Of a DNA stretch of 64,000 nucleotides, positions 23,963 through 35,333 are shown piece after piece. The notes under the pieces were generated by a model. The model did no database searches. It was given only the letters and a program-made list of their open reading frames with translations, and was not told where the DNA came from. The DNA is taken from assembly GCA_029975475.1 (NCBI GenBank), contig JARKPB010000008.1:1302001-1366000 (forward strand). Direction: 5' to 3'. Numbering within the stretch: the first letter of the stretch is position 1; each line of letters starts with the position of its first letter. Source of the DNA: Anaerolineaceae bacterium. GTDB taxonomy: Bacteria > Chloroflexota > Anaerolineae > Anaerolineales > Anaerolineaceae. The position numbers and the translations under genes are program-made.

Positions 23963-26900
23963 TTACGCCTTGATCAATCCGATGGTCACTTCTTCTCCAT
24001 CAAAGGTGTCGCTGGCTGCTGCCGCCTCATTTTGAGGCTCGCCAAAGGTCAGTTCGAGCGCCAGGGTTTCTGCCATTATGTAATCGCGGAAGGAACGGCA
24101 GGCTTTCTGGAGGCCGGGAGTGGCTTTAACGGTGACCTTGATGCGGTCCGCGATTTCCAAACCGGCGGTTTTCCGCAGGTCCTGGATGCGCCGGACCAGT
24201 TCACGGGCCAGGCCTTCTTCAACCAGCTCAGGCGTCAGCGTGGTTACCAGGGCAGCCAGATAGGGGCCGTCGGAAGCAACTGCGAAGCCCTCGCGAGCCT
24301 GGACTCGCACTTCAACTTCTTCAGGCAGGATCTCGAGCACGCCGCCGTCTACCTCAACGGAGATTGGCTTTCCGTCCAGCAATTCTCGGGCAGCAACATC
24401 GGCCGGAAATTCGAGGATGGCTTTGCGAACCGCCGGAAAGCGGGAGCCGTATTTCTGGCCCAACTGTTTGGGCAGCGGATTGAGCGAGTAAGCCGCCGCT
24501 TCGCCAGCGCCAGAAAGCGGGCGAATGTGCTTGACATTTAATTCATCTTCCAGCAAGTCCGCGTAAGCAGCCAGGATCGCGGCTTCTTCCGCGCTGCCGA
24601 GCGCGAAGGCGGCTTCCGCCAGCGGCTGGCGGACTTTGCGGTTGGCTTTGTTGCGAGCCGCGTGCCCGAGTGATGCCAGGCGCATGACCAGGCTCATTTC
24701 ACGGTTTAAGGAGTCATTGATGGCGGCTTGATCCGCCGCAGGCCAGTCGCAAAGGTGAACGGAAAGCGGGGCGGCGGGATCATGCGAGCGCACCAGGTTC
24801 TGATAAAGCTCTTCGGCAATGAACGGCATGGTGGGAGCCAGCAGCTTGCTCAAGGTGACCAGGGCTTCATAAAGGGTGGCGTAAGCCGCCTGCTTGTCAG
24901 CATCCGAGCCGCTCTTCCAGAAGCGGCGGCGCGACCGGCGCAGGTACCAGTTGGAAAGCTGATCCACAAAGGTTTCAATCGGGCGGGTCGCACCAAGGAC
25001 ATCGTAGTTTTCCAGAGCCGCGGAAACATCCCTCACCAGAGCGTGCAGCGAGGAGCGCAGCCAGAGATCAAGCGAATTGTAAGCCGGGACTTCATTCGAG
25101 ACCGGTTTCCAACCGTCCAGATTGGCGTAGGTAACAAAGAATGAGTAGGTATTCCAGAGCGTCAGGGTGAAATTGCGCACAACCTCTTCAACCAGGTCTG
25201 AAGAGAAGCGCCGTTCCTGGCCGGGCGGGCTGGCGGTGTAAAGATACCAGCGCATGGCGTCCGCCCCGTTGCGGTTGATAACCTCCCAGGGATCGACGAT
25301 GTTCTTCTTGGTTTTGCTCATCTTTTGCCCCTGTCCGTCGAGGATCAGACCCAGGCAGATGACATTCTTGAAGGAAATATCGTCGAACAGAAGCGTGCTG
25401 ATGGCGTGAAGGGTGTAGAACCAGCCGCGCGTCTGGTCAACCGCCTCGCAGATGTAATCGGCGGGGAATTGCTGTTTGAACTGGTCCAGGTTCTCAAAGG
25501 GATAATGCCACTGAGCTACCGGCATCGAGCCAGAATCGAACCAGACGTCAATCAATTCAGGTACGCGCTTCATCACGCCGCCGCATTCCTTACAGCGCAG
25601 TCTGACCTTGTCGACATGCGGGCGGTGGAGATCAAGATCGGAGAGGTCCCGGCCAGCGCGGGCGGAAAGCTCTTCCACTGAACCGATACAATCCTGGCTG
25701 CGGCAAGATTCACATTCCCAGACCGGCAAAGGGGTGCCCCAGTACCGCTCCCGGCCCAGCGCCCAGTCAATATTGTTGCTCAGCCAGTTGCCAAAACGGC
25801 CGGTCTTGATATGGCCCGGGTACCAGTTGATCTTGTTGTTTAATTCCACCAGGCGGTCGCGGAACTGGCTGGTGCGGATATACCAGGTGGGGCGGGCGTA
25901 ATAAAGCAGCGGGGTTGAGCAGCGCCAGCAGAAGGGGTAGGTATGGGTATAGGTGCCGGCGCGCAGCAGCAAACCGCGGTCTTCCAAATCGCGAATGATC
26001 AGCGGATCTGCCTGTTTGACGAATTTGCCAGCCCAGGGCCGAACTTCGGAGAGGAAGCTGCCGTCCGGCGCGACGGTCATCAAAATCGGCAGATCAAACT
26101 CGATGGCCACGTTCATATCATCCGCGCCGAAAGCCGGGGCGATGTGTACCAGACCCGATCCGTCTTCTGTGGTAACAAAATCACCCAGAACGACATAATG
26201 GGCCGGTTTTTCCAACGGTAAAAAGGTGAAGAGCGGCTGGTAGCGTTTGCCTTTCAACTGTTTGCCCTTCATGCGCTCGACAACGCGCGGATGGTGCTCG
26301 CCAAACACTTTTTCCAGCAAATTCTCCGCCAAAATCAGGTGTTCGCTGCCTCCTTCCGGGAGTTCGTGTTCAACCTTTACATAATCCACATCCGCTCCGG
26401 CCGCCACCGCGACATTGGCCGGCAGAGTCCAGGGAGTGGTGGTCCACACCAGCAGGGAGGTGCCGGGCTCATCTACCAGCGGCATCCGTACGAAAACAGA
26501 AGGGTCCTCGGCATCCCGGTAGCCCTGGGCGACCTCATGGTCGCTGAGCGGTGTGCCGCAGCGCGGGCAGTACGGCACAACTTTGAAGCCCTGATAAAGC
26601 AGCCCTTTTTCCCAGAAATTTTTTAAGATCCACCAAACGGTTTCGATGTATTCGTTTTTATAGGTGATATAGGCAGTATCCAGGTCAACCCAGAAGGCGA
26701 TCCGGTCGGTCAGCCGCTCCCACTCCTGAATATAGGTAAAAGCGGATTCGCGGCAAAGTTCATTAAACCGATCAATGCCGTATTCTTCAATCTGGCTTTT
26801 ATTGGTAAAGCCGAGCTTTTTTTCCACCTCGATTTCCACCGGCAGACCGTGGGTATCCCAGCCGCCGCGGCGGCTGACGTGGTAACCGCGCATGGTTTTG

Positions 26901-27112
26901 TAACGCGGGAAGATATCCTTAAAGGCGCGTGCCAGCACATGGTGAACACCCGGCTTGCCGTTTGCGGTCGGCGGGCCTTCGTAGAAAACGTATTCCGGGC
27001 CGCCTTTGCGCATTTCCATCGATTTGTGAAAGATATCGTGGCTCTTCCAGTAGCGTAAAACACCTTCTTCCATCAGGGTAACATTCAATTTCGGTGATAC
27101 AGGTTTAAACAT
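23963..27112 (-). CDS. ileS: Isoleucyl-tRNA synthetase, type 2 (eukaryotic-like)
   Basis: The 1049-residue class I synthetase has the HIGH-like motif in GPPTANGKPGVHHVLARAFKD (about 45-65), the editing CP1 insertion (about 180-400, with TTTPWTLPAN) and the KMSKS loop as GQKMSKTKKN (about 595-605). The C-terminal tail and the PGVHHVLAR form match the long type 2 enzymes shared with eukaryotes and archaea; in this family such enzymes are typically mupirocin-insensitive. GGAGG precedes the ATG. It is controlled by a T-box leader and ended by its own terminator. Confidence 0.96.
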   Translation of the reverse strand: MFKPVSPKLNVTLMEEGVLRYWKSHDIFHKSMEMRKGGPEYVFYEGPPTANGKPGVHHVLARAFKDIFPRYKTMRGYHVSRRGGWDTHGLPVEIEVEKKLGFTNKSQIEEYGIDRFNELCRESAFTYIQEWERLTDRIAFWVDLDTAYITYKNEYIETVWWILKNFWEKGLLYQGFKVVPYCPRCGTPLSDHEVAQGYRDAEDPSVFVRMPLVDEPGTSLLVWTTTPWTLPANVAVAAGADVDYVKVEHELPEGGSEHLILAENLLEKVFGEHHPRVVERMKGKQLKGKRYQPLFTFLPLEKPAHYVVLGDFVTTEDGSGLVHIAPAFGADDMNVAIEFDLPILMTVAPDGSFLSEVRPWAGKFVKQADPLIIRDLEDRGLLLRAGTYTHTYPFCWRCSTPLLYYARPTWYIRTSQFRDRLVELNNKINWYPGHIKTGRFGNWLSNNIDWALGRERYWGTPLPVWECESCRSQDCIGSVEELSARAGRDLSDLDLHRPHVDKVRLRCKECGGVMKRVPELIDVWFDSGSMPVAQWHYPFENLDQFKQQFPADYICEAVDQTRGWFYTLHAISTLLFDDISFKNVICLGLILDGQGQKMSKTKKNIVDPWEVINRNGADAMRWYLYTASPPGQERRFSSDLVEEVVRNFTLTLWNTYSFFVTYANLDGWKPVSNEVPAYNSLDLWLRSSLHALVRDVSAALENYDVLGATRPIETFVDQLSNWYLRRSRRRFWKSGSDADKQAAYATLYEALVTLSKLLAPTMPFIAEELYQNLVRSHDPAAPLSVHLCDWPAADQAAINDSLNREMSLVMRLASLGHAARNKANRKVRQPLAEAAFALGSAEEAAILAAYADLLEDELNVKHIRPLSGAGEAAAYSLNPLPKQLGQKYGSRFPAVRKAILEFPADVAARELLDGKPISVEVDGGVLEILPEEVEVRVQAREGFAVASDGPYLAALVTTLTPELVEEGLARELVRRIQDLRKTAGLEIADRIKVTVKATPGLQKACRSFRDYIMAETLALELTFGEPQNEAAAASDTFDGEEVTIGLIKA

Positions 27113-27468: not shown

Positions 27469-29532
27469 TCAGGGTGCGATGTAGCGGTACAGTGAAAATC
27501 CCAGCACGCTGCCGACCAGTTCGGTGTGACCGGGAAATATGGAATAATACGGGGCGGTCATCATCAAGACGCCTTCCGCGCCCATCACGTAATCCAGGCC
27601 AATTTCCTTGAGGTAAGCGGGCACTTCCCAGCTTTTCAGCAGCTCAAAATATTGTTTGCTGTTGATCAACCCGTCCAGGTTGGTGATGGTGCGGTCATTA
27701 ATAAAATAAGCCGTCGCGCCGCCCCCTGGCATGCCGATCAGGCTGCCCGGAGGGGTCATCTTCTCAACAAATGCAGCTTCCTGGAGATAGGCGGCCTGAA
27801 TATTTTCCTGTTGATACGCGACAAGGGAGGGCCGTTGAGCAACCATGAGGCTGAACAGCAGCCATCCCGCCGCCAGACCGGCCGCCAGCCGCAGCCAGCG
27901 GTTTTCCCCCGGTTTCTTCAGCAGCAGCCCGATGAAACCATCCAGCGAGAGGGCGAATAGAAAGACCGCCAGAAGGCTTTCATTTGACCAGTACCAGGGT
28001 TTGTAGTTCACGTAAGAACTGCCCGTGTAGGAAAGAATCTGGAGCATGGAAGAAGACAGCAAGGCATAAGCCAGCACCGCATCCAGATCGCGCCGAAGAC
28101 TCGATTTGCGGAGTCCGAGTCCGAGGCCGAGCACCCCCAACCAGATCAGACCGGCGGGGCGCAGCCATTTTTCCATAAATTCATTTCCGCCGCCGCTGGC
28201 AGACGCGGCTGCCTTGACCGCCCGGAACACCGGTTCGTTTAGCAAACCCCAGGGGCTTTTATCCAGGCGGGGGAAGTACCCGAAAAGAGACGGAAGGTCA
28301 TCGATCGGTTTTCCATAGGGGGTCTCGCTGAGCGTGCCCCACCAGTGTTTTACCTGACCGCTGACCGGCATGGCGGTTCCAAAGGTGGTTTGGTTGAAGA
28401 TCAGATAAGCGCCCAGAGTGACAACGACCGGCAGGGAATACTGCAGCCCGTGAAGCAGCCAGCGTTTCCAGCTGGCGCGCAATTCTTCGAGGGGCGCGGG
28501 CGCTCCATCCGCCGGCGCTTCAACCAGTGCGTACCCCAGCAAGCGCAGCAAGAAGATTAACAACAGGCTGATGGCGGGTTCGAACAAAACTGCCAGGCGC
28601 GGAACGCTGTTCACCCAGCCGATTTGATATAAAAGGAGCAATCCGGCCGCGGTTGGAAGTGAAGATAAGCCAACCGTGAGAACCACACGCCTGATTTCTT
28701 CCGCCCATGCCCAGCGCGGCGGACGGGATAATACACTGAAAAAATAGCCCAGCAGAATTTTAAGCGGCAGAATGAGCGCCAGATATCCATAGACCGTCGG
28801 CAGGAAGGAAGCGTAAACCGGTTGAAAATCAAAGCGCAAAAGAAAAGCCAGGAAAACGGAAATCAGCGCGGCGATCAGCATCCCGGTCCAGTAGATATAG
28901 CGTCTGCCCTGCCGGAACAGCACCACAAGCCCGACGGCCAGAACCAGAAAGGCATTATCCAGGCGGCTTAAGAGCGCCAGGGCAGCCAGGCCGCCGAGCA
29001 GCAGGCGCTGTCCGGCGGTTTCATTTTCAACCGGACGGTTGATCAGGCGGGCTGTCTGGGCAACCAGCAGGGCGACCAGAAAGGCGTTGATTCCGATTTC
29101 CATGCCCTGCCGGGTGACCGTGTTGTGTAAGGGGGCATAGAAAGCCCAGAAAAATGCCGCCAGCATAGCCAGGGAGGGACGAACCACCGGTTTTAAGATC
29201 CGGTAAATCAATACTCCCGTTCCGGCGGTTAACAGAGTCGACAGAAGTATGATTAAACGCAGGGGTAGAATCAGGTCAACCTTCGCCAGGGTAAAAACGG
29301 GCAGCAAGACCAGCATCCAAAGGGGATGGTAACCATTGGTTAAGTTAAATCCGTCAAATGTTGAGCCGTTCCCGGCCAGGATGTTGCGCGCCACCTGATA
29401 GTAATAAAAAGCATCATCGGTTGTGAACCAGCGGTCAAGCACCCAGCTCACCGGCGCAAGCATGAAAACCAGGTGGCTCAAGATCACTACCAGGATGAAA
29501 ATCCATTCAAATTGTACTTTGCGCAACCCCAT
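27469..29532 (-). CDS. GT-C-fold membrane glycosyltransferase-like protein
   Basis: The start is taken at the ATG at 29532, preceded by GGGAGG, giving 687 residues; the frame is open to 29598. About twelve hydrophobic helices are seen. The first extracytoplasmic loop carries the acidic pair typical of GT-C (GT39/ArnT-like) enzymes, FTTDDAFYYYQVARNI, with NGYHPLWML after it. The C-terminal periplasmic-type part contains GMPGGGATAYFI and ITNLDGLINSKQYFELL, a pattern recurrent in large Chloroflexota membrane proteins of this group. It probably transfers a sugar from a polyprenyl-phosphate donor; the acceptor is unknown. It lies 80 nt downstream of the GTPase gene. Confidence 0.75.
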   Translation of the reverse strand: MGLRKVQFEWIFILVVILSHLVFMLAPVSWVLDRWFTTDDAFYYYQVARNILAGNGSTFDGFNLTNGYHPLWMLVLLPVFTLAKVDLILPLRLIILLSTLLTAGTGVLIYRILKPVVRPSLAMLAAFFWAFYAPLHNTVTRQGMEIGINAFLVALLVAQTARLINRPVENETAGQRLLLGGLAALALLSRLDNAFLVLAVGLVVLFRQGRRYIYWTGMLIAALISVFLAFLLRFDFQPVYASFLPTVYGYLALILPLKILLGYFFSVLSRPPRWAWAEEIRRVVLTVGLSSLPTAAGLLLLYQIGWVNSVPRLAVLFEPAISLLLIFLLRLLGYALVEAPADGAPAPLEELRASWKRWLLHGLQYSLPVVVTLGAYLIFNQTTFGTAMPVSGQVKHWWGTLSETPYGKPIDDLPSLFGYFPRLDKSPWGLLNEPVFRAVKAAASASGGGNEFMEKWLRPAGLIWLGVLGLGLGLRKSSLRRDLDAVLAYALLSSSMLQILSYTGSSYVNYKPWYWSNESLLAVFLFALSLDGFIGLLLKKPGENRWLRLAAGLAAGWLLFSLMVAQRPSLVAYQQENIQAAYLQEAAFVEKMTPPGSLIGMPGGGATAYFINDRTITNLDGLINSKQYFELLKSWEVPAYLKEIGLDYVMGAEGVLMMTAPYYSIFPGHTELVGSVLGFSLYRYIAP

Positions 29533-29612
29533 CCATTCCTCCCGGGTGGCTTGAGCGAACCGCATCCTGCGTTGAGAAGATTTTCCGCAATTCTGCAATT
29601 ATACCGGCTAAT

Positions 29613-30146
29613 TTATCCGCCCGCACGGTAGTGCCTATACGCAATTAAAGCCAGGCGGGTGAACATTTCTGCCACCCCAGCGCCGGTTAACGCGCTGGTT
29701 TTCACCGCGGGTTTGCCCCACTGCCCCGCAAACCGGGCACCGGCCTCGTTTTCCGTCCCCGGCAGGTCTTCTTTATTCCCCACCACCAGCCAGTCAATCG
29801 CCGGTTCGCGGCGCTGGATTTCTTCCAGCCAGCGGGGAAGATCAGCCGCGCTTTGCGGGTCGCTGAGATCATACACCAGCGCAGCCGCCAGCGCGCCGCG
29901 GTAGAAACCTTCCCGCACGGTCGCAAAACGATCCTGACCGGCGATATCCCAGATGGAAAGCTTGACCTCACCGCCGGGTAGCGCCACCCGCCGGGTTTGA
30001 AAATCCACTCCAATCGTCATGACCCGGGTGTGCTCGAAACGCTCTTCACACCAGCGGCGGATCAGGGAGGTCTTGCCGACTCCCCCATTCCCTACCAGCA
30101 AAACCTTCAGGACCGGTTCGTGAGGCGCGAATGGATCAGAAGTCAT
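29613..30146 (-). CDS. Ras/Rab-like small GTPase
   Basis: The 177-residue protein has a complete set of G motifs: G1 GNGGVGKTS (19-27), G2 Thr44 in MTIGVDF, G3 WDIAGQDRF with the Ras-type Gln71, G4 NKED (124-127) and G5 TSAL (150-153). The closeness to eukaryotic Rab proteins (IGVDFQTRRV, WDIAGQDRF) is striking. It lacks C-terminal cysteines for prenylation. Bacterial relatives such as MglA act in polarity, but this protein is closer to the Rab pattern. The ATG lies inside the end of the upstream gene (11-nt overlap), so the two proteins are made together. Confidence 0.92.
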   Translation of the reverse strand: MTSDPFAPHEPVLKVLLVGNGGVGKTSLIRRWCEERFEHTRVMTIGVDFQTRRVALPGGEVKLSIWDIAGQDRFATVREGFYRGALAAALVYDLSDPQSAADLPRWLEEIQRREPAIDWLVVGNKEDLPGTENEAGARFAGQWGKPAVKTSALTGAGVAEMFTRLALIAYRHYRAGG

Positions 30147-30873
30147 GGGTCAAATAATATTCATGCAGACAGACCAGCGCGGATGCGTCCACCGGGGCTT
30201 TCTCCAGCACCTGCGCATTGGCGTGCTCAAAGACCTGGTGCATCTGCTCCAATTTTTTTAGCTGTTCGCCCGAAGGTTCCAGAGAGAACAGCAGTATCGA
30301 AGTGGTCAAACGCCCCGCCAAAAAGCACAACCAGCGGCCGCCCTCGATTTCCATCGTCCGGACGCCAGCGCCAAAGATTTCCTGCGTGGCCGAACGATAG
30401 GATGAAAGCATCGGGACAAACAGAGCCGGGTCCAGGCTAAATTGTCCCCCATCGCGAACGGGCATGCCGGAATGGTTGTCATAGATCGCGTAGCCCAGCA
30501 AGCGCGCGGCGGACCGCCGGCGGATGAGAATGGATTGACCTTCCGTGACGGCGTCCTTCCAGGACTCACCAGACGGGCTCAGACGCAGCAGATTCTCAAC
30601 CTGCCGCATTTCGGTTTGATAATGGTCGTAAAGTTCTTCAAACTGGCGGCGGTTGATGCGGCCGGCAGCGAATTTCGCGGCCAGCGAGCCAATTTTTCCA
30701 CGCAGTTTTTCCAGGTACGCCTCGCCCTCGCGCTGGCTGCGCCAGTCGGGGCGGTCAGCCGTCAGAGGCGGCGCGGCTTCTTCAGGGGAGACCGGGACTT
30801 GCTCAAATGACTGCGGCTGGGGTTCTGGCGCCGAGCGGCCGAAAACGCGTTTGAACCAGGGTAATTTCTTCAT
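30136..30873 (-). CDS. GTPase-associated protein, possible longin/roadblock-like regulator
   Basis: Not recognised by strong motifs. The 245-residue protein begins with a basic, hydrophobic patch (MKKLPWFKRVFGR) and a Pro/Glu linker. A coiled-coil region follows (about 45-95). A C-terminal alpha/beta domain (about 120-235) reads LLGYAIYDNHSGMPV..., then WLCFLAGRLTTSILLFSLEP and a long closing helix. That alternation resembles longin/roadblock folds, which act as partners, exchange factors or GAPs of small GTPases. The overlap with the Ras-like gene supports a partnership. The assignment is inference; a profile search would decide. GAGGAGCC precedes the ATG. Confidence 0.55.
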   Translation of the reverse strand: MKKLPWFKRVFGRSAPEPQPQSFEQVPVSPEEAAPPLTADRPDWRSQREGEAYLEKLRGKIGSLAAKFAAGRINRRQFEELYDHYQTEMRQVENLLRLSPSGESWKDAVTEGQSILIRRRSAARLLGYAIYDNHSGMPVRDGGQFSLDPALFVPMLSSYRSATQEIFGAGVRTMEIEGGRWLCFLAGRLTTSILLFSLEPSGEQLKKLEQMHQVFEHANAQVLEKAPVDASALVCLHEYYLTHDF

Positions 30874-30979: not shown

Positions 30980-32284
30980 TTATTCAATGACGCCGTAAAA
31001 CAGGGGCAGCTCTTCTACCGGGCCGGAGGAGATCTCTACCGCCGCGAGCAGACGCTGACGGGCATACGCCAGGCTTTCAGGACTGGCGGCATGAACGGTG
31101 AACAAAGCATCCCCGGCCCGGATGGTTTCGCCAACTTTGCGGTGCACGATGATCCCGACGCGGTGGTCAATGCTGTCTGTTTTGACCGCCCGACCAGCGC
31201 CCAGCTCTACCGAGGTCTCACCCACCGTGCGGGCGTGGATCATGCGGATCACCCCGCTTTGCGGAGCGGAAATCGTTTCAATCACGGGAGCCAGGGGGAA
31301 TTTTTCAGGCTGATCCACGTAACTGACATCCCCGCCCTGTATCTGAACCAGGCGCCGGAAAGCCTGCCAGGCGCTGCCGCTGGCCAGCGCTTTTTCGGCG
31401 ATTTCTCGTCCGGTCTGAATATCCGCAGCCCGGCCCCCCACCCGGAGGAGGTGACTGGCGACCACCAGACAATGTTCGCGAAAATCGTGCGGTCCGCCGT
31501 TCTGCAGGGTTTCAATGGCTTCTTTGACTTCCAGGGCGTTGCCAACCGCGAACCCGAGCGGCTGGTTCATATCGGAAAGCAATGCAACGGTGGTGCGGCC
31601 GGATAGTTTGCCAATCGCGACCATAAGCTGCGCCAGCCGGCGGCCTTCTTCCAGGCTGGTCATAAACGCGCCGTTGCCGATCTTGACATCCAGCACAATC
31701 GCTTGAGCTCCGGCAGCGATCTTTTTGGACATCACGGATGAAGCGATTAAGGGGATGGACTGAACCGTGCCGGTGACATCCCGCAGGGCATACAATTTGC
31801 CGTCGGCAGGTGCCAGGTCAGCGGACTGGCCGGCCAAAACCAGTCCTTCTTTTGCCAGTTGTTCCATGAACTGTTCGCGGGTCAGGTTAACCTGAAAGCC
31901 CGGAATGGATTCCATTTTATCCAGCGTTCCGCCGCTGAAACCCAGACCCCGCCCGGACATCTTTCCAACCGGCAGGCCGCAGGCAGCCACCAGCGGTTCG
32001 ACAACCAGCGTGGTTTTATCCCCGACTCCGCCGGTTGAGTGTTTATCCACCGCAATTTTTACCGCGGCGGAAAGATCCAGCATCTCGCCGGAATGCGCCA
32101 TTGCCAGAGTCAAATCGGTGGTTTCCTGATCGGTCATTCCGTTCAGCAAAACCGCCATCGCCCAGGCCGCCGCCTGATAATCAGGGATCTTGCCTGAGGT
32201 AAAGCCTTCAATAAAAAACTCGATTTCTTCGCGGGTTAAGGTTCCTTTATCGCGTTTCTTAATAATCACATCTACAGCGCGCAT
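30980..32284 (-). CDS. Pyrimidine-nucleoside (thymidine) phosphorylase
   Basis: The 434-residue protein has the conserved phosphate/ribose-binding signature KHSTGGVGDKTTL (81-93), then GKMSGRGLGFSGGTLDKME. C-terminal GRAVKTDSIDHRVGI and KVGETIRAGDALFTVHA belong to the small lipoyl-like domain. It splits thymidine/uridine into base and (deoxy)ribose 1-phosphate. Family members that use both uridine and thymidine (pdp) and those specific for thymidine (deoA) cannot be separated here. It has its own Shine-Dalgarno site (CAGGAG) and terminator and lies between the khpB operon and the GTPase genes. Confidence 0.93.
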   Translation of the reverse strand: MRAVDVIIKKRDKGTLTREEIEFFIEGFTSGKIPDYQAAAWAMAVLLNGMTDQETTDLTLAMAHSGEMLDLSAAVKIAVDKHSTGGVGDKTTLVVEPLVAACGLPVGKMSGRGLGFSGGTLDKMESIPGFQVNLTREQFMEQLAKEGLVLAGQSADLAPADGKLYALRDVTGTVQSIPLIASSVMSKKIAAGAQAIVLDVKIGNGAFMTSLEEGRRLAQLMVAIGKLSGRTTVALLSDMNQPLGFAVGNALEVKEAIETLQNGGPHDFREHCLVVASHLLRVGGRAADIQTGREIAEKALASGSAWQAFRRLVQIQGGDVSYVDQPEKFPLAPVIETISAPQSGVIRMIHARTVGETSVELGAGRAVKTDSIDHRVGIIVHRKVGETIRAGDALFTVHAASPESLAYARQRLLAAVEISSGPVEELPLFYGVIE

Positions 32285-33156: not shown

Positions 33157-33942
33157 TTATTTCTTCACCACGACTGCTTTTTTGCGGTTGGGAAAAATAT
33201 TTTCCCAGTACAGGCGGCCAATCAACCCGTATTGCAGGATACCGATCAGGTTCGAGGCAACAAAATAAAGCGCCAGACCGGATGCCAGGCTGAAGGAAAT
33301 CCACCCCATGAGCAAGGGCATGTAAATGCTCATCATGGAATTCACCCGGGCGGACTGGTCTTTGCTGTTGGCAGAGGGAGGCATGCTCAGCTTCGTTTGA
33401 AGGAAGGACGTGACGACCACAATGATGGTCAGCACGGGGATGCCGAATGAAAGACCGGGGATATACAGCCGTTCCGGCTGGGTGAGGTCCATCCAGAGAA
33501 ACTGGTTGTTCAACGGAATCAGGTTTGAGACATCCAGCAGCCAGGGATAAATGTGCTTGGTCAACTTCAACAGTTCCATCGGGGCATTTCCCGAAGCGGC
33601 GATGATCGCCTGGTAGAGACCAATGATGATTGGGAACTGGATTAACGTAGGGAGGCAGGATGAAAACGGGTTGACCCCCAGTTCCTGGATCAGTTTCGCC
33701 TGTTCCTGCTGCAGTTTTTCTTTATCATTCTTGTACTTGACCTGCAGGTCCTGCCAGCGTTTATCCTGCTGCAATTCCTGCATGGCCTGGCTGCCCTTGA
33801 TTTGTTTGACCATCAACGGATGGGTTACCAGGCGGATCAAGAGGGTAAAGAGGATTACCGCGATGCCAAAATTCTGGCCGAGGTACTGATAAATGAACAT
33901 CAAAATATTGATAAACGGTGTGATGATAATCGCGTCCCACAT
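33157..33942 (-). CDS. yidC: YidC/Oxa1-type membrane protein insertase
   Basis: The 261-residue protein is of the short Gram-positive-like form without the large periplasmic P1 domain. It has a first helix, then the hydrophilic-groove helix with Arg37 in LFTLLIRLVTHPLM, a cytoplasmic coiled hairpin rich in Lys/Gln (about 50-85), and the helices NPFSSCLPTLIQFPIIIGLY and ...GWISFSLASGLALYF. The tail KKAVVVKK is basic and short. It inserts membrane proteins with or without SecYEG. The gene order rpmH-rnpA-yidD-yidC-khpB is classical, except that a lipoprotein gene sits before yidC. Confidence 0.96.
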   Translation of the reverse strand: MWDAIIITPFINILMFIYQYLGQNFGIAVILFTLLIRLVTHPLMVKQIKGSQAMQELQQDKRWQDLQVKYKNDKEKLQQEQAKLIQELGVNPFSSCLPTLIQFPIIIGLYQAIIAASGNAPMELLKLTKHIYPWLLDVSNLIPLNNQFLWMDLTQPERLYIPGLSFGIPVLTIIVVVTSFLQTKLSMPPSANSKDQSARVNSMMSIYMPLLMGWISFSLASGLALYFVASNLIGILQYGLIGRLYWENIFPNRKKAVVVKK

Positions 33943-33953
33943 GGTTCCCTGCC

Positions 33954-35006
33954 TTATTTCGCCGGTGTAAAGGGCCGGACAACTTTACCGTCCGCATCCA
34001 GGACGACCAGCAAGAACTCGCCGTCCTTTACCGCAACAACCAAATTTTCACCATCGAATACCGGGGTGGTATACAGGCTGCCCTTTACCGTGGTATTCCA
34101 GGCGCTGGTTCCGTTGGGATTGAAAGCGGTGATCGTGCCGTTTTCGGTAACGAAAACAATGCGGTCTTTCACCGCCACGGGAGAGGCTACGATCGGTGAT
34201 TTCAGGTCGCCGAATTTTTCCATACGGCCGTCTTTGGCCGATACCGCATAAGCCGCTCCGGTCTGGTCGCCTACATATAGCCTGTCGCCAACCAGCAAGG
34301 GGGTGCCCCAGACGATCCCGTCCAGGCTGGTCTTCCACAGCGGGCTGCCAGTTTTGATATCCCAGGCTTCCAGGTCTTTCGCAAAGGTGCCGACATAGAG
34401 CGTGTCGTTTGCCAGCAGCGGTTCTGAGACGACCGCTCCTTCGACTGTAATGCGCCAGAGTTCCTTGCCGGATGTAAGGTCAATACCAAAGATGGTCTTA
34501 TTCAGTCCGGCAACGATAACGGTCTGATCCTTGACGATCGGGCGGGTCCAGAGTTGCTGCTGCAGGTTTAGACTCCAGAGCAATTTCCCATTCCGATCCA
34601 GCGAATAGAGGCTGCCGTCCGTGTTGGCAGCCAGGATGGAATCATTCAGGATCAAAGCCGGGGCAATCCAGCGGCGCTTTGCCTGATCAAACTGCCACTG
34701 TTCGACCCCATTTTGAGGGGAAATGCCAAACAGCCGGTTGGTGTAATCACCCACCACAATCAGATTAGAGGAGACGGCGGGCGCCGCATAAAAGAACTCG
34801 GTATTTTTCGGTTCAGCCGGAAAACGCCAGGTCTCGATGCCCTTTTGATAGTCTACCGCGTATACCATTGTGCCGTAGGAGATGTAAGCCGTGCTGCCGC
34901 TGACAGACAGGCCCGGCCAGGAAGTGGTCACCCCGGCGCCTGAACAGGCGCTCAGCAAAACCGCGGCGAACACCAGAACTAGAGCGAGAAAAAGAGTACG
35001 CTTCAT
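33954..35006 (-). CDS. PQQ-type beta-propeller lipoprotein (BamB-like fold)
   Basis: The 350-residue protein has a lipoprotein signal with lipobox LLSAC (Cys21). Repeated blades follow, each with an ALLWS- or ELWRI-type end (YQKGIETWRF, GVEQWQFD, GKLLWSLNL, SGKELWRIT, TGSPLWKTS, GTSAWNTT). This is a seven- or eight-bladed PQQ-like propeller. In diderms BamB belongs to the outer-membrane BAM complex, but no BAM gene is visible and this lineage is usually considered to lack a classic outer membrane. A scaffold role beside YidC is a guess. It is placed 11 nt before yidC and 27 nt after yidD. Confidence 0.85.
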   Translation of the reverse strand: MKRTLFLALVLVFAAVLLSACSGAGVTTSWPGLSVSGSTAYISYGTMVYAVDYQKGIETWRFPAEPKNTEFFYAAPAVSSNLIVVGDYTNRLFGISPQNGVEQWQFDQAKRRWIAPALILNDSILAANTDGSLYSLDRNGKLLWSLNLQQQLWTRPIVKDQTVIVAGLNKTIFGIDLTSGKELWRITVEGAVVSEPLLANDTLYVGTFAKDLEAWDIKTGSPLWKTSLDGIVWGTPLLVGDRLYVGDQTGAAYAVSAKDGRMEKFGDLKSPIVASPVAVKDRIVFVTENGTITAFNPNGTSAWNTTVKGSLYTTPVFDGENLVVAVKDGEFLLVVLDADGKVVRPFTPAK

Positions 35007-35033
35007 TGCATGTTTCCCTTGGTGGTTGGATAA

Positions 35034-35333
35034 TCAGGGGACCGGGTCGTAACCGCCCGGGTTGAACGGATTGCAGCGCAATACCCGCCAGATCGCCATG
35101 ATGGTGCCCTTTATGGCGCCGAATTTATAGATGGCTTGGTAACCGTAATGCGAACAGGAAGGATAGAAACGGCAGGTATTTTCGGGCAGGGTGGGAGACA
35201 CGAACATCTGATAGAGGCGGATCAGACCCAGCAGTGGGAAGCGCGGAAGATTCCAAATCGTAACCGGCAGGTCTTTCAACCTGGGTTCATTGGGATAATC
35301 GCCCTGATCTTCAATCTGGGTCGCGCTCATCAA
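35034..35333 (-). CDS. yidD: YidD membrane-insertion efficiency factor
   Basis: The protein has 99 residues. The core [31 protein letters not shown] and [18 protein letters not shown] is diagnostic. A family-atypical N-terminal extension of about 28 polar residues precedes it. The extension is supported because the gene overlaps rnpA by 23 nt and no better start is evident. YidD assists YidC-dependent insertion. Confidence 0.94.

What the first reader, a model, noticed from the sequence alone, without database searches (positions are those of the whole stretch)
29613..30873. Rab-like GTPase translationally coupled to a possible regulator
A Ras/Rab-type GTPase with WDIAGQDRF overlaps by 11 nt a protein with a basic N-terminus, a coiled coil and a longin/roadblock-like C-terminal domain. 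In eukaryotes and in MglA/MglB such partners control GTPases. This may be a bacterial membrane-polarity or trafficking-type switch; the downstream GT-C enzyme gene is the next in line.
Basis: partly seen in the sequence, partly recalled or inferred. Interest (0 to 1): 0.6.

Follow-up and report, generated by a model that had tools for sequence, protein, structure and literature searches.

The report
Bacterial Rab-like switch with longin partner
A bacterium related to the Chloroflexota carries a molecular switch of the kind that steers vesicles in our own cells, paired with a partner that is predicted to share the fold of the switch's eukaryotic regulators and that may hold it at the membrane.

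Summary
At 29613-30146 (-) lies a Rab/Ras-type GTPase (G). It overlaps by 11 nt the 3' end of a 245-aa protein (P, 30136-30873). P has a short basic N-terminal helix, a Pro-rich linker, a helical hairpin and a confidently predicted C-terminal domain. No Pfam or NCBIfam profile recognises P. Its domain is closer to eukaryotic longin domains (Sec22b Z 11.7 over 117 residues) than to roadblock domains (best 9.6 over 95). The P-G pair is a real unit: G adjoins P in 25 of 29 named relatives, once fused in frame, and 15 of 16 sampled class genomes with a close G also encode P. No other gene family recurs in more than 5 of 30 loci; the GT-C gene is absent from a syntenic relative. G keeps the catalytic Gln, lacks a lipidation tail and is not MglA. 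Outside the class, a related longin part is attached to predicted membrane helices. Best reading: P is a membrane-bound longin platform that recruits and regulates G; whether as GEF, GAP or effector is unknown. This is a new variant of prokaryotic GTPase/roadblock-type switches. Binding, membrane attachment and nucleotide effects are inferred, not shown.

The parts
30136..30873 (-). P: 245-aa partner protein (basic helix, Pro-rich linker, helical hairpin, longin-fold domain)
   Evidence: ORF; homologues; AF2 model mean pLDDT 84.7
30832..30873 (-). P residues 1-14: basic amphipathic N-terminal helix, proposed membrane anchor
   Evidence: AF2 helix 6-11 at low confidence; motif in 20 of 30 P proteins, 3 of 238 neighbouring ORFs, 0.3% of shuffles, pattern chosen after seeing the data
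30745..30831 (-). P residues 15-43: Pro-rich linker, low confidence in the model
   Evidence: mean pLDDT 53-63 in the blocks of residues 1-40; linker length varies among relatives
30580..30744 (-). P residues 44-98: helical hairpin with the conserved stretch FAxGxINRxQFxELYxHYQ
30139..30510 (-). P residues 122-245: longin-fold domain (predicted)
   Evidence: Foldseek and VIA-align best matches Sec22b; VIA-align then Fuzzy/CPLANE, Ykt6, TRAPP
29613..30146 (-). G: 177-aa Rab/Ras-type small GTPase
   Evidence: Pfam Ras 133 bits, Rab1B best PDB sequence match
30069..30092 (-). G P-loop GNGGVGKT (residues 19-26)
30000..30026 (-). G switch I region RVMTIGVDF (residues 41-49)
   Evidence: T44 in 26 of 26 rows
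29925..29951 (-). G3 motif WDIAGQDRF (residues 66-74) with Gln71
   Evidence: D67 in 26 of 26, Q71 in 25 of 26 rows
29766..29777 (-). G4 motif NKED (residues 124-127)
   Evidence: K125 and D127 in 26 of 26, N124 in 23 of 26 rows
30136..30146 (-). 11-nt overlap of the P stop and the G start

Best explanation
P and G form a two-protein membrane switch. G cycles between GTP and GDP with its own catalytic glutamine, like a Rab. G has no lipid tail. P attaches to the inner membrane through its N-terminal basic helix, and its hairpin plus longin domain, probably as a dimer, form the docking platform that holds G at the membrane and regulates its nucleotide state, most likely as an exchange factor or scaffold. 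Shown here: gene pairing, co-occurrence, one natural fusion, G motifs, no recognisable lipidation tail. Predicted: the longin fold. Inferred: binding, dimerisation, membrane attachment, GEF or scaffold action. Output unknown; links to two-component proteins in some relatives suggest signalling rather than vesicle traffic.
For: G adjoins P in 25 of 29 named loci, including one with G upstream and one in-frame fusion. In 396 class genomes P occurs in 39 and close G (205 bits or more, E<=1.6e-60; cut-off set after seeing the list, above the receiver-fused forms) in 16, of which 15 have P (Fisher p 7e-16, not corrected for kinship). Only P and G recur widely: the next gene families are in 5 and 4 of 30 loci. 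Longin fold: Sec22b Z 11.7 over 117 residues, a chain of the CPLANE/Fuzzy complex 11.5, Ykt6 10.8. N-terminal basic motif in 20 of 30 P. In six genomes outside the class the longin part of the P profile (positions about 80-195) lies C-terminal to predicted transmembrane segments; 5 of these 6 hold a stand-alone Ras-type GTPase (E about 1e-31) elsewhere (no control genomes). Window G has no Cys in its last 12 residues; 1 of 26 rows has one, not at the end. Model of the natural fusion: pTM 0.74 over 373 residues, higher than I would expect if the two domains were placed independently (inference; no PAE available).
Against: No binding or activity data. With the looser cut-off (E<=1e-30, which takes in receiver-fused and other GTPases) only 20 of 108 G-bearing genomes have P, and 19 of the 39 P genomes have no such G. 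P homologues occur without G next door in 4 of 29 named loci (two of these genomes hold a close G elsewhere, the other two only weaker ones) and in the f21 family loci examined. One close G (G057) has no P at E<=1e-10. P is patchy: 5 of 37 genomes of the window's own family. The fusion rests on one metagenome assembly. The fold rests on a model; P matches no Pfam longin profile, and Foldseek alone mixes longin and roadblock entries from rank 5 on. The N-terminal motif was defined after looking, 10 of 30 P lack it as defined, and the hydrophobic moment beat shuffles at p<=0.05 in only 8 of 24 (window p 0.25). The GTPases of the transmembrane longin genomes are not linked to the longin genes.
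Confidence: 0.6

Rival explanations
1. P is a GAP for G, working like MglB on MglA: a longin/roadblock-type dimer that orders the switches and speeds GTP hydrolysis.
For: Same fold superfamily as MglB (Z 9.5 over 97 residues) and gene pairing like mglBA; Arg118 is conserved in 29 of 30 P.
Against: G has its own Gln and the ordinary Rab/Ras G3 motif, so it should not need the MglA-type rearrangement (inference); no profile similarity between P and the genome's Robl_LC7 protein. No test here separates GAP from GEF.
Confidence: 0.2
2. P is an effector or membrane adaptor: it binds G-GTP only and passes the signal on, without changing the nucleotide state.
For: Possible membrane-anchor architecture in P and the transmembrane longin proteins outside the class; P homologues without an adjacent GTPase.
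Against: No downstream output gene is conserved.
Confidence: 0.15
3. The two genes are merely neighbours in an operon and the proteins do not interact.
For: P and G each occur without the other in some genomes.
Against: Adjacency in 25 of 29 loci in changing surroundings, both gene orders, one fusion, 15 of 16 co-occurrence for close G.
Confidence: 0.05

Closest known systems
MglA/MglB of Myxococcus and Thermus (PMC4316618, passages read)
   Same: Bacterial Ras-superfamily GTPase encoded with a partner of the longin/roadblock fold superfamily.
   Different: G has the Rab/Ras G3 motif with Asp (MglA lacks it, per the paper). P is nearer longin than roadblock, matches no Robl_LC7 profile, and adds a helical hairpin and a basic N-terminal helix. 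The host genome has a separate Robl_LC7 protein.
Rup GTPases (Ras superfamily, unknown function in prokaryotes; PMC4316618, passages read)
   Same: Prokaryotic GTPases closest to the eukaryotic Rab/Ras/Rho/Ran group; listed there in Chloroflexi.
   Different: In that paper 0 of 121 Rup are coupled to MglB, and Group 1 Rup lack the G3 Gln, which is present in 25 of 26 G here. Whether G falls among the unclassified Rup was not tested.
Eukaryotic longin-Rab pairs (Fuzzy-Inturned/Rab23, Mon1-Ccz1/Rab7, TRAPP/Rab1; roles partly recalled)
   Same: Longin-fold regulator plus Rab-type GTPase.
   Different: Eukaryotic Rabs are prenylated and their longin regulators form multi-subunit complexes; here no lipid tail and a single partner gene.
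Asgard archaeal GTPases fused to longin or roadblock domains (PMC10933270, section 7 and passages read)
   Same: GTPase plus longin in one chain.
   Different: There Rag-like or Arf-like GTPases in archaea; here a Rab-like GTPase in bacteria, usually as two genes.

Membership tests
Ras superfamily (Rab/Ras type) small GTPase | G1-G5 motifs in one domain of about 165 aa | tested here: met
   Pfam Ras 133 bits, profile positions 1-157 of 162; G19, G24, K25, T44, D67, G70, K125, D127, S151 the same in 26 of 26 rows
Eukaryotic Rab | C-terminal hypervariable tail with prenylated Cys | tested here: not met
   Cys in the last 12 residues in 1 of 26 rows, not at the end; none in the window's G
MglA family | G3 lacking the conserved Asp (as stated in PMC4316618) | tested here: not met
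   Asp67 present in 26 of 26 rows
Rup family, Group 1 | Missing Gln in G3 (as stated in PMC4316618) | tested here: not met
   Gln71 in 25 of 26 rows
Rup family as a whole | Phylogenetic placement with Rup references | not tested
   No Rup reference sequences were fetched
Roadblock/LC7 (MglB) | Robl_LC7 sequence profile | tested here: not met
   No Robl_LC7 match for P at E<=10 nor among the 22 families matched by members of the 30-row alignment at E<=1; hhalign to the genome's own Robl_LC7 protein E 0.42 over 14 columns
Roadblock/LC7 (MglB) | Roadblock fold | tested here: inconclusive
   Roadblock chains align with Z up to 9.6 over 95 residues, below the longins; the two folds share a core
Longin domain (fold) | b1-b2-a1-b3-b4-b5-a2-a3 fold of about 125 residues | tested here: met
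   Predicted model; VIA-align Z 11.7, rmsd 2.9, 117 residues of the 128 of Sec22b; first Roadblock-labelled row at rank 21. Prediction, not experiment
Longin domain (sequence family) | Match to a Pfam longin profile | tested here: not met
   No longin family (E<=10) or (E<=1)
Longin Rab-GEF | Catalyses nucleotide release from the Rab | not testable with these tools
   Needs biochemistry

The most novel reading that the evidence does not exclude
A bacterial Rab-longin module: a Rab-type GTPase without lipid anchor whose cognate longin-fold protein serves as both membrane anchor and exchange factor, i.e. the regulatory core of eukaryotic membrane-identity switches working in a bacterium. Two ways of anchoring the longin (amphipathic helix in the window's class, transmembrane segments in family f113) and a swap to a receiver domain on the GTPase (f40) would show how such switches reach membranes and signals without prenylation.
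Probability: 0.3. Interest if true: 0.85.

Novelty: new variant of a known kind. Interest (0 to 1): 0.62.

Why it matters
Longin domains are major GTPase platforms of eukaryotic membrane traffic, and in the papers seen here their pre-eukaryotic history is discussed mainly for archaea. A Rab-like GTPase tied to a longin-fold partner in bacteria would be a small, testable system for how such platforms bind and regulate Rab-type GTPases. It also bears on how GTPases without lipid tails could reach membranes, which PMC4917890 treats as a gap for Lokiarchaeum (passages read). PMC4316618 states that no Rup member had been characterised experimentally; this would add a candidate regulator for a Rab/Rup-like bacterial GTPase.

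Tried and rejected
Sequence-based identification of P failed: Pfam (one match, E 0.2; scattered matches in 1 to 5 of 30 members, the best E 7e-4 to NatA_aux_su in 2 members and 1.4e-3 to FliJ in 3, helical families that I take as chance), NCBIfam (none at E<=1) and a PDB sequence profile search (three hits at E 0.74 and worse). MglB membership was considered and dropped. The GT-C gene as part of the module was dropped because the IleRS ORF follows G in the syntenic relative L082. A conserved third gene was sought around 29 loci plus the window: the largest other clusters are ORFs that look like ABC transporters (5 of 30 loci) and like the GTPase HflX (4 of 30; names read from sequence, not run against a library); further clusters cover 3 or fewer loci. 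Around 16 loci, 14 of them without adjacent G, no other cluster exceeds 3 loci. Tree: P-linked G are not one clade; the receiver-fused and other long-N-terminus G of f40 and f12 form one clade (100/99) that joins the P-linked G of f45 and L106 (97/88); the labels need 10 changes. Some rows are long branches, so deep joins are unsure. A first mixed alignment (A3) put P rows on G and was replaced by A5. The search with the fused model against the PDB was filled by Ras, Rab and Rho chains and says nothing about the P-G interface. Coevolution analysis was not attempted: too few pairs. The profile search of 400 phylum genomes found P-like domains in 12, six of them the f113 longin parts. The named search used only two short peptide patterns, so more distant relatives in other phyla could be missed; other phyla were not searched by profile.

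On print: full-text searches listed no paper whose title or abstract start describes a bacterial longin protein paired with a Rab-like GTPase. Table 1 of PMC4917890 lists the combined entry 'Longin/Roadblock' as present in bacteria. Levine 2013 (PMC3747258) is not held, and most subscription papers are not in the library. Papers were seen as passages only (PMC4316618, PMC10933270, PMC4915359, PMC4917890), plus section 7 of PMC10933270; the rest as listings.

Full report
WHAT IS THERE. The window lies in a 3.15-Mb draft genome of 20 contigs (98.9% complete, 3.78% contamination). The 29 named relatives found with P are all labelled Chloroflexi, Chloroflexota, Anaerolineae, Anaerolineales, Ardenticatenales and the like, which I take as the phylum of the window. 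On the minus strand the order is pyrimidine-nucleoside phosphorylase (30980-32284), P (30136-30873), G (29613-30146), a membrane protein of GT-C type (27469-29598, Pfam PMT_2, 28 bits) and IleRS (23963-27112; named from its sequence, no profile run). P and G share 11 nt.

G IS A RAB/RAS-TYPE GTPASE. Pfam Ras 133 bits; best PDB sequences Rab1B, Rab35 and Sec4 (E 9e-35 to 5e-32 for the best of each); the modelled G domain of the fused relative matches Rab1B with Z 27.3 over 166 residues, tied with Ras and RhoA. In 26 G sequences the G3 Asp is invariant and the Gln present in 25, so G is neither of the MglA type nor of Rup Group 1 as described in PMC4316618. Of the five Ras-profile hits in this genome G is the only strong one; the next has 39.6 bits and a better match to ATP_bind_1.

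P HAS A PREDICTED LONGIN FOLD. No Pfam or NCBIfam family is recognised. AlphaFold2 on the window protein with 29 relatives gives mean pLDDT 84.7, above 90 in most blocks of the hairpin and longin core and 66 around residues 161-170. Foldseek's best match is Sec22b (E 4.7e-4), but its list mixes longin and roadblock entries. VIA-align puts Sec22b first (Z 11.7, rmsd 2.9, 117 residues). The next rows are entries labelled CPLANE/Fuzzy, Sec22b, Ykt6, Vamp7, TRAPP, SEDL, synbindin, a Lokiarchaeal longin, Lst4 and KICSTOR; that the CPLANE, TRAPP and KICSTOR chains are longins is recalled. The first Roadblock-labelled row is rank 21 (Z 9.6, 95 residues); MglB has 9.5 over 97. The longins align to the end of P, the roadblocks stop at residues 217-228. 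The two folds share a core, so the preference is moderate. The genome also has one ordinary Robl_LC7 protein with no profile similarity to P.

THE PAIR IS THE CONSERVED UNIT. Among 29 named loci G adjoins P in 25: downstream in 23, upstream in one (L103), and in one (L096) as a single 392-aa open frame without a linker. L100, L104, L107 and L108 have none in the DNA held; the genomes of L100 and L104 have a close G elsewhere, those of L107 and L108 only weaker GTPases. Some of these loci are the same genomes as the unnamed ones (the fusion L096 is L073), so the sets are not independent. Flanking genes differ between lineages; the largest other clusters cover 5 and 4 of 30 loci. In L082, which shares the window's surroundings, the IleRS ORF follows G and the GT-C gene is absent. 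In 396 class genomes P occurs in 39 at E<=1e-10. Close G (205 bits or more; cut-off set after seeing the list) occurs in 16, and 15 of these have P; G057 does not. At the looser E<=1e-30 there are 108 genomes with a G-like GTPase, 20 of them with P. From the coordinates, P and a G-type GTPase are neighbours on one strand in at least 16 of the 39: 12 with P first, and 4 with G first, in which the GTPase is more divergent. Of the other 23, 15 are of family f21, whose P-like proteins are more divergent and have no G next door in the six f21 loci examined. P is patchy: 5 of 37 genomes of the window's own family have it.

ANCHORS. 20 of 30 P proteins carry at the N-terminus a short basic-amphipathic motif (WLKRVF, KLRRLF and the like) against 3 of 238 neighbouring ORFs and 0.3% of shuffled N-termini. 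The pattern was chosen after looking; the hydrophobic moment beat shuffles at p<=0.05 in 8 of 24 sequences only, and not in the window (p 0.25), so motif and charge carry the argument, not the moment. In six genomes outside the class (family f113) the longin part of the P profile lies at the C-terminus of 393-494-aa open frames with predicted transmembrane segments (Kyte-Doolittle, window 19: four in the N-terminal half of five of the six, two in L128). Five of these six genomes have a stand-alone Ras-type GTPase, unlinked; no control genomes of that family were searched. G itself has no recognisable lipidation tail.

LINKS TO TWO-COMPONENT SIGNALLING. Some of the nearest G-like GTPases without P carry extra N-terminal domains: of five tested, four (all f40: L042, L045, L048, L050) have a Response_reg domain and L043 (f12) shows none at E<=0.001. 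In L103 the open frame after P encodes a GAF-HATPase_c protein. This favours a signalling output over vesicle traffic, but no output is shown.

MECHANISM. I propose that P is the membrane platform of G and regulates its nucleotide state, most likely as exchange factor or scaffold, by analogy with longin-Rab pairs; [quoted passage not shown] The AF2 model of the fused L096 protein has pTM 0.74 for 373 residues, which I read as a defined relative placement of the two domains. There is no PAE and there are no coordinates to inspect, the fusion has no linker, and 14 of its 39 alignment rows are stop-read-through neighbours. GEF, GAP and effector roles cannot be separated here.

NOVELTY. The components fall in known superfamilies. 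The combination of a Rab-type GTPase and a longin-fold, possibly membrane-anchored partner in bacteria was not found in the searches listed, within the limits of that library and of reading listings and passages. I rate it a new variant of the prokaryotic GTPase/roadblock-type switch.

Noticed in passing
L042, L045, L048, L050 (family f40 of the class): Relatives of G fused C-terminally to a response-regulator receiver domain, in one clade with other long-N-terminus G (f40, f12) in the tree; a possible two-component-controlled Rab-like GTPase.
   Followed up: partly
L128-L133 (family f113, outside the class): Longin-type domain of the P family at the C-terminus of predicted transmembrane proteins; the four tested reach no Pfam cut-off. 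5 of 6 genomes also have one unlinked Ras-type GTPase.
   Followed up: partly
L103:4131-6829: G, P and a GAF-HATPase_c protein in a row on one strand; the open frame of the last begins at the end of P, its start codon was not determined.
   Followed up: no
L076 and L077: 463- and 524-aa open frames with a P-like hairpin-longin unit preceded by a second partial hairpin match; no GTPase found in the short loci.
   Followed up: no
L002 (own genome, C11:41781-45278): Second small GTPase with ATP_bind_1 and weak Ras similarity, immediately downstream of a DUF4388 protein.
   Followed up: no
window 33157-35333: A lipoprotein-like protein (33954-35006) lies between a YidD-like ORF and a YidC-like gene; its order with the YidC- and Jag-like genes is shared with L082. 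Names are read from sequence; no profile library was run on them.
   Followed up: no
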